From contig JANXVE010000136.1 of assembly GCA_025351825.1 (NCBI GenBank), positions 1 to 58,913 of the forward strand: a stretch of 58,913 nucleotides of DNA. The letters are read 5' to 3'. A program made the translations under genes and the position numbers. Below the pieces are notes generated by a model. It was not told the origin of the DNA. It ran no database searches and saw nothing but the letters and a program-made list of their open reading frames with translations. Shown here in pieces: positions 1-49,122 of this stretch; the stretch's first letter is position 1, and each line of letters begins with the position of its first letter. This DNA is from Chamaesiphon sp. 341R_metabat_111 (GTDB lineage Bacteria; Cyanobacteriota; Cyanobacteriia; Cyanobacteriales; Chamaesiphonaceae).

Positions 1-1
1 T

Positions 2-76
2 AGTTTAGCGATCGAATCTGTCAAGCAGATCTTAGAGCAGTATTTTCAAGCCGATCGTCCTGCTAAAAATACATAA
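2..76 (+). CDS. 3' end of an unidentified CDS (truncated by window edge)
   Basis: An open frame enters from the left edge and stops at TAA (74-76), giving 24 residues that end ADRPAKNT. The tail contains a short helix-like stretch (IESVKQILEQYF). It lies 51 bases before the DUF1822 gene on the same strand, so it may be the preceding gene of the same operon. In other cyanobacteria an ECF-like sigma factor is often found at this place, but nothing in these residues proves that. The fragment is too short to identify. Confidence 0.4.
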   Translation, partial: SLAIESVKQILEQYFQADRPAKNT

Positions 77-127: not shown

Positions 128-1537
128 ATGAGTATTTCTACAAGCCAATCCCAACTATTGAAAACGATATATTCAGAACACATTTGGATCGATGTCGATT
201 TGTATGATTCCGATGTGCGATCGTATCTTCAGGCTGTCAGCGAGTATTTGACTGAATCACTTAATTTAGTTGTCAAACCAATTTTCCCCAGTGAAGAGTC
301 TCACTTACTCTTTGTGGATAAATTAGTCAATGGATTTGGCTTGTCAGTGTCGGGTGTCAGAATTGCCTTTATTCCCAGCCCCGCTCTAGATCTAATGGGG
401 TTTGAAGTCCCGCGAGAATGGGTCGAACTAACTAATTGGATCGCAGATTATTATGTGCCAGTTCAAGTCGATACCGAGCACAATTGCTTGCACCTGTGGG
501 GATTTATCTCACATCAGTATTTGTGCCAGAAAGCTACTCTAGATCTAAGTTTACACAGTTATGAAGTTGACGCGGTGGATCTAGTTAGCGACCTAGATTC
601 CCTTTGGACTGCTTGCGATCTCGTGGCGCGACAACTAATCCCCAGCGAACGTGGCGAAGTTCCAAGCTTGCCGCCATTATCCGAGCCAGAAGCGCGAAAG
701 CTAATCGATCGACTCAAGCAACAAAGATCGAGCTTTGTGGCTCGACTAGGCACATCCTTTGCCCAATGGGGAGCGATCCTAAATTCACCTGAGTATCTGA
801 CTATCTACGCCGAGCCAGAACTGGTAATCACGCAGATCGCGAGCTGGTTTCAGGCTCAAGTTAACTCGATTCAGCAGACAACCGCAAAATTAGTTAAAAA
901 AATCGAGCAGCTACCCGATCGCGACTGGATCTCGATCTATGGATCTTACGATCTATCTCTAGCTCTATCTGGGTACTTTTCCAAATCGATAGAGCCGCAG
1001 TTTAACATGGGGGGAATTGTCCGCATTAATAAACGAGAAATTCGCCAGATAGTGGAAAACTTGTATGCCAATCAAAACCCAAATAACCGAATAGATCTAC
1101 CTGAAAATATTGAATCGCCGCTGCTAATGTTGGTTTATCTGATTCAACACACCACTGATGAGACCCTTCGGTGGCAGGCGGCGGAACATCTGTGGACGAT
1201 CGATCCCGCCAATCATCACTACCAGCGCAAAATTAAGGATTTGGGACTGGTAATGCAGGGCTATAAATTGGGCTTAATGGTTGCGGCAATTCCGCTATTA
1301 GATGGTACTTACTCAATTTTGAACCGGATTTATGCGATCGGCGATCGACATTGTTTGCCACCCGATGTGCGATTGACTTTAGCAGCGGTGAGTGGTGAGC
1401 AACTATATCAAGTGGAGAGTCGTTCTACAGTAGCCGATCGCTATATTCAACTCTACTTTACTGCAAGTATTAGTGAGCGGTTTAATATTTGGGTGGAAAT
1501 GAATGACGCGCGCATCGTCGAAGCTTTTGCGGTCTGA
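128..1537 (+). CDS. DUF1822 family protein
   Basis: A 469-residue soluble protein with no signal peptide or membrane segment. It carries the DUF1822 signature: a FEVPREWVELTNWIADYYVPVQV stretch (about residues 96-119; 'PxEWVxLxxW..DYYVPVQV') followed by 'LHLWGFISHQYL', typical of this cyanobacterial family of unknown biochemical function. The middle (about 185-300) is rich in helices. ATG start; no strong Shine-Dalgarno is visible. The next gene, 76 bases downstream, encodes a CHAT-domain protein; from general knowledge DUF1822 and CHAT genes are recurrent neighbours in cyanobacteria, so a shared role in a signalling or stress module is inferred. Family assignment is fairly sure; function unknown. 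Confidence 0.75.
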   Translation: MSISTSQSQLLKTIYSEHIWIDVDLYDSDVRSYLQAVSEYLTESLNLVVKPIFPSEESHLLFVDKLVNGFGLSVSGVRIAFIPSPALDLMGFEVPREWVELTNWIADYYVPVQVDTEHNCLHLWGFISHQYLCQKATLDLSLHSYEVDAVDLVSDLDSLWTACDLVARQLIPSERGEVPSLPPLSEPEARKLIDRLKQQRSSFVARLGTSFAQWGAILNSPEYLTIYAEPELVITQIASWFQAQVNSIQQTTAKLVKKIEQLPDRDWISIYGSYDLSLALSGYFSKSIEPQFNMGGIVRINKREIRQIVENLYANQNPNNRIDLPENIESPLLMLVYLIQHTTDETLRWQAAEHLWTIDPANHHYQRKIKDLGLVMQGYKLGLMVAAIPLLDGTYSILNRIYAIGDRHCLPPDVRLTLAAVSGEQLYQVESRSTVADRYIQLYFTASISERFNIWVEMNDARIVEAFAV

Positions 1538-1613: not shown

Positions 1614-4304
1614 GTGATTACTTTAGAAACCAAATTGATTATGAGCCATATCCGGATCGTCGATATCAATTCCAGTCCCGATTTGGAGCAATTATCGGCA
1701 ACTCTAACAATTGCAAGTATTGATGATGTGACTGGATCGATCGTCAGTCCGCCCCATCCAGTTGCCAAAGGCTCATTAAATATTCGATCGTTGGTAACGT
1801 TAAATAAACAAATTATTGAAAAATTCCAGGCAGCAACTACTCAAAACCGCTATTTTGGTGGAATCAAAATTCCAGAGGAAATGGTTATCAACGTAGCAGA
1901 TCCGATCGATGAATTGAGAACAGATATTCAGCAGCTTCAAGCAGCCATTAATCTCACGCTAGCTCAAGATACTTGGTCAACTATTCGGGAAGGACTACTG
2001 CAAAGCTTGATCGGCACGGATCCAGCCCAAACAATTAGACTAGTCATCCGCACTGATGATGTCAGTCTCCAGGCTTTGCCCTTAGAAGGAACGTCATTCA
2101 TTACCAATGTCCTTGCAGGGGAAAATAGAAATGTCAGCGTTGTATTCGCACCCCAAAAGCAGCCAAAGAGATTGAGTTGGCACGGCGCACCCAAAATTCT
2201 GTTAGTCCTGGGCAGTCAGAAAAATATCGAGCAGGTGATTTGTATTGAAGATCTAAAAAAACATTTCCCAGCTACTGCAAATTTTAGATCGATCGAGCCA
2301 CAATCGCCAGCAGAACTACTCAGGATCATTGCCGATGAGATATTTGATGTCATCATCATTGTTGGACATAGTTACGCTAATCCGAATGGAATTGATGGAC
2401 GAATTCAGATTAACGATCGAGATGATAGTATCTCGATTCAGGAATTGACCAATCCGTTCAAAGATAGTGTCAATCATGGTCTGAAATTGGTCATTTTAGC
2501 AGGTTGTTCGAGTATTGGTGTCGCTAGAGCATTGGCATCAAACACGATTGGGGTGCCCAATGTGATTGCTTTTAGAGTTCCCGTTCACTATCGCGTCTTG
2601 CAGCTCTTCTTCGATCGACTATTGACTAAATGGGTAGCTAATCGTCAAAGTCTAGAGGTTGCTTTAACTAATACTAGGGCAGAACTCAGCCTGTACGATC
2701 GAGACTGTCCTGGGGCATCAATTTTACCGATCTTATTGACTTCGCCCTACGATCCGCCCTTGTTATTTCCGATCGTCAGGACTAAACCAAAATTCAAATC
2801 TGGCTCAATCTTTTCAAAAATACTGCATATTCTGGTATTTCAACCTCTATTAACAATTAAGTTCAGAGGAAATCAAGTGAAAATACCACCAATTGTATTT
2901 ATTGGCGTGGCTGCCGCTCTATTGTTTCGGATGTTTACCACTGCGCCTCAATTAGCAGCTACCTGCAACAGCACGATTGGGGATGGAATTAGCTGTGGCG
3001 AAGAAATTCTACTCCGAGAAGGGAGTATTCGTCCCCAAGCAGATAAACAAGCTGGTGCTGATGCAATTGCCAGTAAAGATTATCCTAGAGCGATCCAATT
3101 TTTAAACCAAGCTTGGGCTGCCCAAAAAGATCCAGAAACGCTGATTATGCTGGAAAATGCCAAGCTAGCAGATCGCAAAATACCAATCAAAAGTATTGCC
3201 GTCACGATCCCTGGATCTCAATCTACCCCGCTAGATATTCCGACGAGTATGCTCAAAGCCGTCAGCTTTGCCCAGCAGCAGTGGAATGCAGATCCTAATC
3301 ATACCTGGAAACTAGAGGTTGTCCTGGTAGACGATAGCAATGACAAAAATAAGGTACGTGGACTAGCCGCTAATGACGATCGCAGTGACAAAAATCAGGT
3401 ACGTGGATTAGCCGCTAATCTCCTAGAAAGAGGCATAATTGCTGGAATTGGTAGTTATTCGTCAGAAGTAACTTTAGCAGCCAAAGATATCTATAATTCT
3501 AATCGGACGGTGTTAATTTCTAGTACGAGTACATCTACTGAGTTAACTAGTAAAAATTCGGATAGCTTCTTCTTCCGAGTCTGCTCAGACAATGAAATAT
3601 CTGGTAGACAAATTGCCGACTATCTCAAAAGTCACAAACACACTAAAATTGCCCTGTTTCATACAAGTGGTCGGACTTTTAGCGATTCGATGACCAAAGC
3701 TCTAAAAGCAAATATTCAAGGTGTGAGTATTGTCAAAGAATTTAACTTTAAGGGTAAAGGTGAAGCAATTGACGACATTCAAGCAGCCAAACAAGCTGGC
3801 GCACAGGCGATCGTCCTGATTCCCGATGCATATACCAGTTCAGATCCAGAACGTAATCGACTGCTGTCGATTATCCGTAAAAATAATGGCGACTTACCAA
3901 TTATTGGCAATGAAGTTGTCAAGGATCAAACTCTGTTTAATTTCAGTAGTCAGCAATTAAATAAACTAGTAATCAGCCTCCCCTGGCATTCCTCTAGCTA
4001 CCAAAACAATACGATCGCACTGCCTGATTTCTGGGGGAAAAAATCTCAATTGGATCACCGAATCGCAATGACTTATGATGCTACGCAGGTAGTAATCAAG
4101 GCTCTGGATTTGGTGCCGCTCGATCGAGATATTCGCGATGCACGTAAACAGGTTCAAGAGATCGTCAAAGATCCTAGTTTCAATCTGAATGGAATTACTG
4201 GAGAAATTAGCTTCAAAGGTAGCGACAGATCTCAGCCCATCAATAGTCTAGTCCAACCTAAATGCACTGCAACTAAATGTGAAGGCTTTCAGCCTGCACT
4301 ATAA
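1614..4304 (+). CDS. CHAT (caspase-like) domain - TM - periplasmic-binding-protein fusion
   Basis: An 896-residue fusion. Residues 1-390 form a CHAT peptidase-like domain: a hydrophobic strand then GHSYANP with His252, and VILAGCSSIG with Cys298, the expected caspase-type His/Cys dyad; the tail 'VALTNTRAELSLYD' is also CHAT-like. One hydrophobic segment (about 427-444, IVFIGVAAALLFRMF) would place the rest outside. After a short TPR-like stretch (about 475-520), residues 525-890 resemble a type I periplasmic binding protein of the leucine/amide family (VVLVDDS, GIIAGIGSYSSEVTLAA, VLISSTST, MTYDATQVVIKALDL). This arrangement suggests a sensor that couples an external ligand to an internal protease-like domain; that is inference. 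Start is GTG at 1614; an in-frame ATG at 1641 (residue 10) is equally possible. Residues 573-602 hold a tandem duplication. Photolyase follows after 32 bases. Confidence 0.75.
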   Translation: MITLETKLIMSHIRIVDINSSPDLEQLSATLTIASIDDVTGSIVSPPHPVAKGSLNIRSLVTLNKQIIEKFQAATTQNRYFGGIKIPEEMVINVADPIDELRTDIQQLQAAINLTLAQDTWSTIREGLLQSLIGTDPAQTIRLVIRTDDVSLQALPLEGTSFITNVLAGENRNVSVVFAPQKQPKRLSWHGAPKILLVLGSQKNIEQVICIEDLKKHFPATANFRSIEPQSPAELLRIIADEIFDVIIIVGHSYANPNGIDGRIQINDRDDSISIQELTNPFKDSVNHGLKLVILAGCSSIGVARALASNTIGVPNVIAFRVPVHYRVLQLFFDRLLTKWVANRQSLEVALTNTRAELSLYDRDCPGASILPILLTSPYDPPLLFPIVRTKPKFKSGSIFSKILHILVFQPLLTIKFRGNQVKIPPIVFIGVAAALLFRMFTTAPQLAATCNSTIGDGISCGEEILLREGSIRPQADKQAGADAIASKDYPRAIQFLNQAWAAQKDPETLIMLENAKLADRKIPIKSIAVTIPGSQSTPLDIPTSMLKAVSFAQQQWNADPNHTWKLEVVLVDDSNDKNKVRGLAANDDRSDKNQVRGLAANLLERGIIAGIGSYSSEVTLAAKDIYNSNRTVLISSTSTSTELTSKNSDSFFFRVCSDNEISGRQIADYLKSHKHTKIALFHTSGRTFSDSMTKALKANIQGVSIVKEFNFKGKGEAIDDIQAAKQAGAQAIVLIPDAYTSSDPERNRLLSIIRKNNGDLPIIGNEVVKDQTLFNFSSQQLNKLVISLPWHSSSYQNNTIALPDFWGKKSQLDHRIAMTYDATQVVIKALDLVPLDRDIRDARKQVQEIVKDPSFNLNGITGEISFKGSDRSQPINSLVQPKCTATKCEGFQPAL
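3330..3419 (+). repeat. 45-bp in-frame tandem duplication inside the CHAT-PBP gene
   Basis: Two adjacent 45-bp units (3330-3374 and 3375-3419) encode DDSNDKNKVRGLAAN and DDRSDKNQVRGLAAN. The units are about 90% identical, so the duplication is fairly recent but has drifted. It falls in the first strand-helix of the binding-protein fold, where relatives have only one such unit, adding 15 residues without breaking the frame. Confidence 0.9.
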
Positions 4305-48384: not shown

Positions 48385-49122
48385 ATGGAAGTTATTAGTT
48401 TCGATCGCGTGTCGCTCTGGCGACGGACTCAGGAAGAGTTTTCCTATGATATCAAACAAACTATCTTGTCGATCGTCTCAGGCAAATATCGATCGCCTGC
48501 TAAAAAACTAGTCATCAATGATGTCAATTTAGCGGTCTATTCTGGTGAGAAAATTGGAATTATTGGCGGAAATGGAGCTGGCAAATCAACATTACTAAAA
48601 TTAGTTTCGGGGATTCTCGAACCAACGACTGGCAGAGTCAGAGTCCAAGGAAATATCGCACCACTGATCGAACTGGGAGCAGGATTCGATCCAAATATCT
48701 CGACGAGCGATAATATTATTATGTATGGAGTTTTACTAGGATTTTCTCGTCGAGAAATGAAAGCACGGACACCAATGATTTTGGATTTCGCTGAATTGAA
48801 TGATTATGCATTGGTACCAGTCAAAGGCTTATCTTCAGGAATGGTTGCCAGATTGGGGTTTGCGATCGCTACAGATGTCCAGCCAGATATTTTGATTCTC
48901 GATGAAGTTTTATCTGTCGGCGACCAAAGTTTTAAAAACAAATGTCAGCATCGAATCGACAAGTTTCTTAATGGTGAAACCACTGTTTTAGTTGTTTCCC
49001 ACGATCTCGATTTTATTCGGACTGCTTGCGATCGAGTAATTTGGCTCGATCGCGGACGCATAAAATTTATCGGTAGTGGTAAAGAAACAGTCGATCGTTA
49101 CCTCGATACAGTCGCAGCCTAA
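48385..49122 (+). CDS. wzt: ABC transporter ATPase for polysaccharide export (Wzt/TagH-like)
   Basis: A 245-residue ATPase. Walker A GGNGAGKST (61-69), Q/loop region IELGAGFDP, signature LSSGMVARLGFAIA (a variant of LSGGQ typical of this class), Walker B ILILDEVLSVGD, and H-loop VVSHDLDF. The 'PLIELGAGFDPNISTSDNI' stretch is characteristic of Wzt/TagH. It lacks the C-terminal carbohydrate-binding domain found in long Wzt proteins, which fits exporters of galactans and mycobacterial Wzt that do not recognise a capped chain. It partners the Wzm permease 40 bases upstream and closes the operon. Confidence 0.9.
   Translation: MEVISFDRVSLWRRTQEEFSYDIKQTILSIVSGKYRSPAKKLVINDVNLAVYSGEKIGIIGGNGAGKSTLLKLVSGILEPTTGRVRVQGNIAPLIELGAGFDPNISTSDNIIMYGVLLGFSRREMKARTPMILDFAELNDYALVPVKGLSSGMVARLGFAIATDVQPDILILDEVLSVGDQSFKNKCQHRIDKFLNGETTVLVVSHDLDFIRTACDRVIWLDRGRIKFIGSGKETVDRYLDTVAA

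What the first reader, a model, noticed from the sequence alone, without database searches (positions are those of the whole stretch)
1614..4304. CHAT caspase-like domain fused through one TM to a ligand-binding protein
One chain appears to join a cytosolic CHAT domain with an intact His252/Cys298 dyad to an extracytoplasmic type I periplasmic-binding domain. That would be a one-component receptor protease: external small molecule in, proteolysis inside. Paired with DUF1822 upstream, it may be a defence, stress or cell-death module.
Basis: partly seen in the sequence, partly recalled or inferred. Interest (0 to 1): 0.75.

Follow-up and report, generated by a model that had tools for sequence, protein, structure and literature searches.

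The report
Ligand-sensing receptor protease with sigma-factor partners
A cyanobacterial membrane protein joins an outside amino-acid-type sensor to an inside caspase-like protease, and its two recurring gene partners suggest that it controls gene expression by cutting an inhibitor of a sigma factor rather than by killing the cell.

Summary
ORF 1614-4304 (+; likely start ATG 1641) encodes an alpha+beta domain, a CHAT caspase-like domain with His252/Cys298, one membrane helix (about 426-442) and a type I periplasmic-binding domain resembling leucine-binding proteins and mGluR heads. The interpretation needs changing. The gene is third in a cassette: sigma-70-like factor, DUF1822, CHAT-sensor. 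The sigma gene is cut by the window's left edge; its last 24 codons and stop lie at 2-76, the rest on a contig sharing an exact 141-base end. Of 50 sampled cyanobacterial DUF1822 loci, 40 have a sigma gene just upstream and 33 a CHAT gene downstream; 15 are sigma-DUF1822 pairs without downstream CHAT. Sensors are interchangeable (CHASE2, PBP, STAND, TPR), and up to four receptor proteases follow one sigma-DUF1822 pair. Best model: ligand binding outside activates CHAT inside, which cleaves DUF1822 and frees the sigma factor, as Csx29 does to Csx30 in CRISPR type III-E. That cleavage is inferred, not shown. Kaur et al. 2021 described the general class; the PBP version, receptor arrays and DUF1822-as-substrate reading are extensions. 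I found no support for defence or cell death.

The parts
1..76 (+). 3' end of the upstream sigma-70-like gene (codons 2-73, stop TAA 74-76); the rest of the 457-aa open frame lies on contig C8 of the same genome
   Evidence: Exact 141-base overlap of the C8 end and the window start, found at no other place in the genome; sequence; C8 ORF matches the local SIGa profile at 49.7 bits, E 4.3e-17 in a three-protein search, and TIGR02937 weakly, E 0.0027, below its cut-off
128..1537 (+). DUF1822 protein, 469 aa; proposed sigma inhibitor and protease substrate
   Evidence: Pfam PF08852 E 4.4e-52; model pLDDT 85, alpha/beta N-part, helical middle, low-confidence linker 269-297, Ig-like beta-sandwich 366-469
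1614..4304 (+). EACC2-like / CHAT / TM / type I periplasmic-binding receptor protease (likely start ATG 1641)
1641..2009 (+). N-terminal alpha+beta domain (about residues 10-132), EACC2-like
   Evidence: model secondary structure: strands 3-35, helices 48-123 in model numbering, which is protein numbering minus 9; not compared with the published EACC2 alignment
2283..2690 (+). CHAT domain core (Pfam match, residues 224-359)
   Evidence: Pfam PF12770 27.1 bits, cut-off 24; family profile A4 hits solved CHAT protein 8tl0, E 0.0059, both catalytic residues aligned
2367..2369 (+). catalytic His252 codon
   Evidence: invariant
2505..2507 (+). catalytic Cys298 codon
   Evidence: invariant
2889..2939 (+). 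single transmembrane helix, residues 426-442
3039..3167 (+). three-helix TPR-like extracytoplasmic linker, residues 476-518
   Evidence: model helices 467-509; two proteins of L048 match TPR_19 weakly at this place
3186..4295 (+). type I periplasmic-binding domain (residues 525-894); S617, T640 and E767 align with leucine-binding protein S79, T102, E226
   Evidence: residue numbers

Best explanation
It is a transmembrane receptor protease that controls a sigma factor. Shown by sequence or model: an outside binding domain of the leucine-binding/mGluR fold, one membrane helix, an inside CHAT domain with an intact His-Cys dyad, and co-directional sigma-like and DUF1822 genes. Inferred: (1) an amino acid or similar small molecule closes the outer domain; (2) the movement, probably within a dimer, passes through the TPR-like linker and helix and activates CHAT; (3) CHAT cleaves the DUF1822 protein, which otherwise holds the sigma factor inactive; (4) the freed sigma factor transcribes a stress or adaptation regulon. 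Different sensor heads feed the same sigma-DUF1822 output.
For: Cassette order: a sigma gene within 1 kb upstream of DUF1822 in 40 of 50 sampled loci, against 2 of 186 control ORFs; a CHAT gene within 2.5 kb downstream in 33 of 50. Among 79 named loci DUF1822 lies within 1.5 kb upstream of 34 of 45 CHAT-PBP genes but of 0 of 34 genes with the same PBP module and no CHAT; DUF1822 is anywhere in the locus in 39 of 45 against 1 of 34. 15 of 50 are sigma-DUF1822 pairs with no CHAT downstream, so DUF1822 goes first with sigma. RefSeq annotation of a Planktothrix plasmid gives the same order. Own genome: 3 of 3 DUF1822 genes are followed by a CHAT-sensor gene. Arrays: 2-4 CHAT-PBP genes behind one sigma-DUF1822 pair; CHAT halves 56-80% identical, PBP halves 25-31% in 7 of 12 pairs and 44-72% in 5. 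Sensor class needs 15 changes on a quick tree of 108 CHAT domains (shuffled mean 35.6; well-supported branches force 3-5 per class). Dyad invariant. Precedents: Csx29 CHAT cleaves Csx30, which binds and inhibits an ECF sigma (PMC10028731, passages); membrane CHAT protein HetF can cleave the negative regulator PatU3 (PMC12288457, passages).
Against: No cleavage, binding or ligand data. DUF1822 shows no detectable relation to Csx30: the A3 profile found no credible solved chain and Csx30 is not among the rows shown. Nothing shows that DUF1822 binds sigma. A conserved linker Arg/Lys in DUF1822 is also present where CHAT is absent (14 of 15), so it is not a clean cleavage signature, and the window's own DUF1822 lacks the motif. 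The window CHAT is very divergent (end branch 2.64; Ala at 296 where the other 60 of 61 have Asn) and may have altered specificity or activity. The sigma match of the window's own partner is weak, and that of the short SIGb type is weak in many members. 10 of 50 sampled DUF1822 genes have no sigma hit just upstream. 11 of 45 CHAT-PBP genes have no DUF1822 within 1.5 kb upstream (for 2 of them, L135 and L166, the contig ends there).
Confidence: 0.48

Rival explanations
1. Autoproteolysis: ligand binding makes CHAT cut its own chain, freeing a cytosolic EACC2-CHAT piece or changing the receptor; DUF1822 and sigma act later as adaptors (close to the proposal of Kaur et al. 2021).
For: Proposed for EACC2-caspase proteins with DUF1822 and ECF sigma neighbours (PMC8195603 section 9); low-confidence stretches between CHAT and the helix (model 384-389, 391-393, 398-416) could be self-cleavage sites.
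Against: Does not explain why DUF1822 is tied to sigma even without downstream CHAT (15 of 50) or why arrays of receptors share one DUF1822.
Confidence: 0.2
2. CHAT works without cutting: the receptor binds or releases the DUF1822-sigma complex at the membrane, and ligand changes that binding.
For: A single-pass receptor can sequester partners; the window copy has a divergent active-site surround.
Against: His and Cys are invariant in 108 of 108 domains, unlikely for a mere scaffold.
Confidence: 0.14
3. The sigma factor itself is the substrate, cut from an inactive long form; DUF1822 is an adaptor that presents it.
For: SIGa proteins in CHAT cassettes are often long (380-632 aa) with extra segments; proteolytic pro-sigma activation is known (recalled).
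Against: Short SIGb proteins of 208-296 aa occupy the same place, and sigma-DUF1822 pairs without downstream CHAT have SIGa proteins of 390 aa or more too.
Confidence: 0.11
4. A defence or cell-death module: CHAT is an executioner protease unleashed by an outside signal.
For: CHAT and STAND heads occur in immune-type proteins; one CHAT gene next to DUF1822 (L092) carries nSTAND1 and WD40 instead of PBP.
Against: PADLOC finds nothing convincing at the locus; the recurring partner is a sigma factor; three cassettes in this genome and arrays of 2-4 receptors elsewhere suit graded sensing better.
Confidence: 0.07

Closest known systems
EACC2-caspase systems with DUF1822 and ECF sigma (Kaur, Iyer, Burroughs, Aravind 2021, PMC8195603; section 9 read whole)
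   Same: Constant N-terminal alpha+beta domain plus caspase domain, highly variable C-terminus including extracellular small-molecule receptors with TM helices, and DUF1822 and ECF sigma genes beside it
   Different: Section 9 names CHASE2, PDZ, kinase, STAND, macro, trypsin-like and unnamed 'small-molecule-binding domains'; the main text contains neither 'periplasmic' nor 'PBP' (figures and data files not seen). Receptor arrays and a DUF1822-as-substrate mechanism are not in that section, which proposes autopeptidase activation
CRISPR type III-E CASP/Craspase: Csx29 (TPR-CHAT), Csx30, CASP-sigma (PMC10028731, PMC9729208; passages)
   Same: CHAT protease with His-Cys dyad, a neighbouring protein that is both substrate and sigma inhibitor, and a sigma-70-family gene in one locus
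   Different: Input there is target RNA through Cas7-11; here it would be an outside ligand through one membrane helix. No detectable similarity between DUF1822 and Csx30 here
HetF of Anabaena, a membrane CHAT protein that can cleave PatU3 (PMC8406250, PMC12288457; passages)
   Same: Cyanobacterial CHAT with one predicted TM segment that limits a negative regulator and so favours a developmental programme
   Different: TPR rather than a binding-protein domain; no sigma-DUF1822 cassette mentioned in the passages seen
Ser/Thr kinase-TM-PBP receptors of cyanobacteria (L016, L017, L021, L024, L027, L035)
   Same: Same outside module joined to a cytosolic enzyme by one chain
   Different: Kinase instead of protease. 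In a separate set of 34 loci with this PBP module and no CHAT, 0 have DUF1822 just upstream; the neighbours of the six named here were not mapped
Leucine-binding protein LivJ/LivK and class C GPCR heads
   Same: Fold, and three amino-acid contacts conserved in this copy
   Different: Tethered C-terminally to a helix and CHAT; no ABC permease found among the immediate neighbours that were searched

Membership tests
EACC2-caspase system (Kaur et al. 2021) | N-terminal alpha+beta domain before the caspase domain | tested here: inconclusive
   Model shows about 120 residues of alpha+beta before CHAT; no comparison with the published EACC2 alignment was possible
EACC2-caspase system (Kaur et al. 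2021) | caspase-superfamily domain with His-Cys dyad | tested here: met
   Pfam CHAT over cut-off; dyad invariant
EACC2-caspase system (Kaur et al. 2021) | variable C-terminal sensor or effector region | tested here: met
   PBP, CHASE2, nSTAND1, WD40, TPR, PsbP-like behind the same N-part
EACC2-caspase system (Kaur et al. 2021) | DUF1822 and ECF sigma genes in the neighbourhood | tested here: met
   DUF1822 at 128-1537; sigma-like gene across the contig junction, weak by curated models
CRISPR type III-E CASP | Cas7-11/gRAMP partner | not tested
   No search for Cas7-11 was made
CRISPR type III-E CASP | Csx30-family substrate | tested here: inconclusive
   DUF1822 profile finds no credible solved chain; Csx30 is not among the structure rows shown, which does not exclude it
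Orthocaspase/metacaspase (Peptidase_C14) | match to the p20-type peptidase domain model | tested here: not met
   Three Pfam families were returned at E up to 1: Peripla_BP_6, ANF_receptor and CHAT
Type I periplasmic-binding (HAAT) domain | fold and Pfam match | tested here: met
Type I periplasmic-binding (HAAT) domain | amino-acid contacts S79, T102, E226 (leucine-binding protein numbering; contact roles recalled) | tested here: met
   S617, T640, E767 here; in the family S 60 of 61, T 30 of 61, E 4 of 61, and all three only in this protein and the paralogue L043
ABC-transporter substrate-binding protein | linked permease/ATPase genes | tested here: inconclusive
   Neighbours to 8095 are DUF1822, a photolyase-related protein, a 408-aa protein not searched in Pfam, and a bestrophin; an ABC ATPase lies 44 kb away at 48385
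Anti-sigma factor (DUF1822) | binds and inhibits the cognate sigma | not testable with these tools
   Genetic linkage only

The most novel reading that the evidence does not exclude
A general bacterial signalling logic in which outside-ligand receptor proteases cut a DUF1822 anti-sigma factor: the membrane-receptor counterpart of CRISPR Craspase. One sigma-DUF1822 output node is fed by arrays of up to four receptors with different ligand heads, and the RNA-triggered III-E system is one of several input variants of the CHAT / anti-sigma / sigma design.
Probability: 0.33. Interest if true: 0.83.

Novelty: new variant of a known kind. Interest (0 to 1): 0.61.

Why it matters
DUF1822 matches occur in 240 of 386 sampled genomes of the phylum, 227 of them over the family's cut-off (the 8-14 kb neighbourhoods examined come only from the stronger matches), and I found no function for it in the searches. 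If it is the cleaved inhibitor of a sigma factor, a large set of unexplained cyanobacterial caspase-like proteins become receptors with a testable output, and Craspase becomes one case of a wider design. Interchangeable sensor heads on one proteolytic switch would also give a natural modular biosensor.

Tried and rejected
Defence or cell-death module: PADLOC on the pair gave only BovA E 0.0077; on 10 further window proteins, JetC E 3e-5, and mad3 E 3e-21 with two weaker hits on what Pfam calls an ABC ATPase, 44 kb away. Rejected as main reading.

Homology of DUF1822 with Csx30: A3 profile against solved chains gave only MHC class I chance hits at E 0.27 or worse. Foldseek gave nothing at E 0.001. 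VIA-align matched mainly the C-terminal Ig-like sandwich (Z up to 8.5, rmsd 2.6, 84 residues); Csx30 was not among the 50 rows shown. Kept as analogy only.

Special closeness of the sigma genes to the type III-E sigma model NF041236: best hit for L053 (E 6e-4), and for L044 E 8e-7 against 1.7e-27 for general TIGR02937; 2 of 16 SIGb members against 7 of 16 for TIGR02937. Not claimed. SIGa and SIGb could not be linked by profile comparison (hhalign probability 5%), and the SIGb profile finds no credible sigma chain among solved structures. That SIGb is a sigma factor rests on 7 of 16 TIGR02937 matches at E 0.1 or better and on RefSeq's name for the Planktothrix gene.

A cleavage-site motif in DUF1822: a linker Arg/Lys is conserved in 68 of 81 CHAT-linked proteins but also in 14 of 15 SIGa-linked ones without CHAT; a preceding Phe is in 46 of 81 and 0 of 15; the regex occurs in 43 of 81 against 14.7 expected from shuffles, and in 3 of 15 against 3.8. 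The CHAT-less set may be one clade, and the window copy lacks the motif, so this is only a lead.

An amino-acid ligand for the whole family: the E226 equivalent is in only 4 of 61, so the inference is limited to this copy and its paralogue. Disulfides: C884 aligns with Cys in 14 of 61 but C451 and C889 in 2 of 61 each; no family-wide claim.

A sigma gene found from the closest relative: the L045 upstream protein found no match in the window's genome; the partner was found through TIGR02937 and the contig overlap.

Rows dropped or not independent: the 50-locus sample is every third of the first 148 rows, i.e. strong matches only. L049, which helped seed the SIGa profile, and its near relatives L056 and L057 are in that sample; without them sigma is upstream in 37 of 47 and CHAT downstream in 30 of 47. 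L085 and L106 overlap, being two DUF1822 genes of one genome. L067 and L075 hold CHAT genes on the other strand but count as 'sigma only'. L111 is a partial DUF1822. Some named Microcystis loci (L145, L147, L149, L152) are the same contigs as L049, L057, L056, L058, judged by equal contig lengths. The 79 named loci are the best of a capped list. The tree left out L056, L058, L106, identical domains, and hits with E of 1e-40 or above or of 380 aa or less; the DUF1822 set left out L106, E above 1e-15, under 290 aa and identical rows. One search scored at most two candidates per genome, so it gives no fusion count per genome. The tree is a quick one with long branches (window 2.64, L043 2.76).
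Full report
OBSERVATION. The ORF at 1614-4304 is real and open for 896 codons from GTG. Most of the 15 CHAT-TM-PBP relatives aligned with it in A1 begin where the window protein has Met10, so ATG 1641 is the likelier start. Pfam finds CHAT (224-359, 27.1 bits, cut-off 24), Peripla_BP_6 (585-736, 53.8 bits, cut-off 31.7) and ANF_receptor (547-737). The strongest hydrophobic stretch is 424-442; the AlphaFold2 model, built on 38 aligned sequences, has a helix at model 417-433, which is 426-442 in the protein, though local confidence is low to modest. In 61 CHAT-PBP proteins a 19-residue window of 1.6 or more lies between the two halves in 56, and the N-side is more basic in 47, equal in 12 and less basic in 2. 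Together these give CHAT inside and PBP outside.

FOLDS. The model has mean pLDDT 83.4 and pTM 0.58. Foldseek places the C-terminal half with 4mlc, leucine-binding proteins and mGluR ligand domains (885 matches at E 0.001 or better, 50 shown). Its support is the Pfam match, a profile hit of the aligned family to the solved CHAT protein 8tl0 (E 0.0059) in which His and Cys align, and the secondary-structure order, with His just after one core strand and Cys at the end of a later one. The dyad is invariant in 61 of 61 fusions and in 108 of 108 EACC2-CHAT domains whatever sensor they carry. One CHAT-like protein of the same genome that lies away from DUF1822, with WD40-like repeats (L009), seems to lack the His (read by eye).

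NEIGHBOURS. DUF1822 lies directly upstream (128-1537). The genome has three DUF1822 genes, each followed by a CHAT-sensor gene: PBP here, PBP on C58, CHASE2 on C123. The window begins at a contig end. The first 141 bases of the window equal the reverse complement of the first 141 bases of contig C8, and this stretch was found nowhere else in the genome. Across this overlap runs a 457-aa frame whose stop is at window 74-76. It matches a local profile of the upstream genes of relatives (49.7 bits, E 4.3e-17 among three proteins) and only weakly TIGR02937 (E 0.0027). The corresponding C123 gene is a clear sigma-70-family protein (TIGR02937 E 1.7e-27); the C58 gene is weak (E 7.3e-4). In a broader set 18 of 18 long upstream proteins match TIGR02937 at E 0.01 or better, but only 7 of 16 short ones at E 0.1 or better. 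RefSeq calls a short one on a Planktothrix plasmid 'sigma-70 family RNA polymerase sigma factor', followed by DUF1822 and then the fusion.

HOW GENERAL. PF08852 (DUF1822) is matched in 240 of 386 genomes drawn from the phylum, 227 over its cut-off, and in 0 of 14 control genomes. Of 50 loci taken as every third of the first 148 rows, 25 have sigma + DUF1822 + CHAT, 15 sigma + DUF1822 only, 8 DUF1822 + CHAT only and 2 neither (sigma within 1 kb upstream, CHAT within 2.5 kb downstream, same strand). Control: 2 of 186 other ORFs of 250 aa or more in these loci have a sigma hit just upstream. Sensors of the 33 CHAT proteins: CHASE2 21, PBP 4, other 8; 7 of those 8 were examined and gave nSTAND1, nSTAND1 with WD40, TPR (three), PsbP-like, or nothing. 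One capped scan of named genomes gave 79 loci, 45 of them CHAT-PBP fusions; 34 of 45 have DUF1822 within 1.5 kb upstream and 32 of 45 also sigma. The other 34 loci carry the same PBP module without CHAT; 0 of 34 have DUF1822 there, and 1 of 34 has it anywhere in the locus (39 of 45 for the fusions). Six of six non-CHAT PBP proteins of 786-903 aa from the earlier search are Ser/Thr kinase fusions. So the association follows the CHAT half, not the sensor half.

INTERCHANGEABLE INPUT. On a tree of 108 CHAT domains the three sensor classes need 15 changes (35.6 when shuffled), PBP against the rest 8, of which 3 are forced by well-supported branches (a quick tree). Several genomes have arrays of CHAT-PBP genes behind one sigma-DUF1822 pair: four in Microseira wollei (L112), three in L114, two in L113, L115, L119 and L132. 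CHAT halves are 56-80% identical while PBP halves are 25-31% identical in 7 of the 12 pairs compared, and 44-72% in the other 5 (L132 was mapped but not compared). Many inputs and one output is the simplest reading.

LIGAND. S617, T640 and E767 align with leucine-binding protein S79, T102 and E226 (alignment; residue numbers; contact roles recalled). All three occur together only here and in the C58 paralogue, 2 of 61. An alpha-amino acid is therefore a reasonable guess for this copy, not for the family.

MECHANISM. I propose: ligand closes the outer domain, the helix transmits the change, CHAT becomes active, DUF1822 is cut, sigma is freed. The first three steps rest on fold, topology and an intact dyad. 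The last two rest on gene order, on sigma-DUF1822 pairs that exist without downstream CHAT, and on two precedents: Csx29 cleaving the sigma inhibitor Csx30 (PMC10028731, passages; PMC9729208, passages) and HetF, a CHAT protein with one predicted TM segment (PMC8406250, passages) that can cleave the negative regulator PatU3 (PMC12288457, passages). DUF1822 is predicted well (pLDDT 85.2) with a low-confidence stretch at 269-297 and a C-terminal Ig-like sandwich; the stretch is a plausible but untested place for a cut. Results against: no detectable DUF1822-Csx30 similarity, a linker Arg/Lys that is conserved even without CHAT while the window copy lacks the motif, 10 of 50 DUF1822 genes without a sigma hit upstream, and the strong divergence of the window copy's active-site surroundings.

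PRIOR WORK. Kaur et al. 2021 (PMC8195603; section 9 read whole) defined EACC2-caspase proteins with variable C-termini and DUF1822 plus ECF sigma neighbours, and proposed autopeptidase activation with the sigma factor as a possible final step. This locus belongs to that class. In the held open library only two papers contain 'DUF1822', and of three holding 'EACC2' one is relevant. None holds 'sigma factor', 'CHAT', 'anti-sigma', 'cyanobacteria' and 'caspase' together, and none holds 'CHAT domain', 'transmembrane' and 'periplasmic binding' together. In the listing none of the 20 papers shown contains DUF1822 (238 held two of the four terms asked). A survey of 473 cyanobacterial orthocaspases lists one 'PBP-like_2' and one CHAT among accessory domains (PMC8283722, passages). 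A 2012 survey of prokaryotic caspase homologues (PMC3501461) was seen only in the listing. Subscription papers and preprints were not searched, so priority of the PBP variant is not certain.

VERDICT. Observation confirmed; receptor-protease reading supported as architecture; defence or death reading not supported; best seen as a sensor variant of a known but unexplained class, with a concrete and cheap test of mechanism.

Noticed in passing
L112:7749-17956, L114:3381-12366, L113:5500-10660, L115:7536-12779, L119:7797-12965, L132:7809-12671: Arrays of 2-4 CHAT-TM-PBP genes behind a single sigma-DUF1822 pair, with CHAT halves conserved and PBP halves often diverged.
   Followed up: partly
window 3330-3419: 45-bp tandem duplication (2 copies, 91% match) inside the PBP coding region, adding 15 residues in a low-confidence loop; relatives in A1 mostly have a gap there.
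   Followed up: partly
L065-L076, L080, L081, L083: 15 sampled loci have sigma-DUF1822 pairs with no CHAT gene downstream on the same strand; what else controls them is unknown.
   Followed up: no
L048:8402-10479, L050:10065-12136, L191:773-2934: A PspA/IM30-like gene beside a stand-alone PBP gene next to the sigma-DUF1822-CHAT-PBP cassette in three loci, one a Planktothrix plasmid (in L050 the PspA match is just under its cut-off), hinting at an envelope-stress link.
   Followed up: no
L043:5860-7257: Stand-alone PBP gene of the same genome, about 1.5 kb downstream of the C58 CHAT-PBP gene, 41% identical to the window's PBP half; possible companion or competitor for ligand.
   Followed up: no
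L126:7800-11537: A 1246-aa CHAT fusion with two PBP domains in tandem; L134, L135 and L138 have similar length.
   Followed up: no
DUF1822 inter-domain linker, alignment of 102 proteins: Phe before a conserved linker Arg/Lys in 46 of 81 CHAT-linked and 0 of 15 CHAT-less SIGa-linked DUF1822 proteins; possible recognition site, confounded by ancestry.
   Followed up: partly
L009 (own genome C133:9906-13064): CHAT-like domain with WD40-like repeats that appears to have lost the catalytic His (read by eye).
   Followed up: no
L001 (own genome C70:3984-4772): A CHAT gene with an internal TAA, possibly a pseudogene.
   Followed up: no
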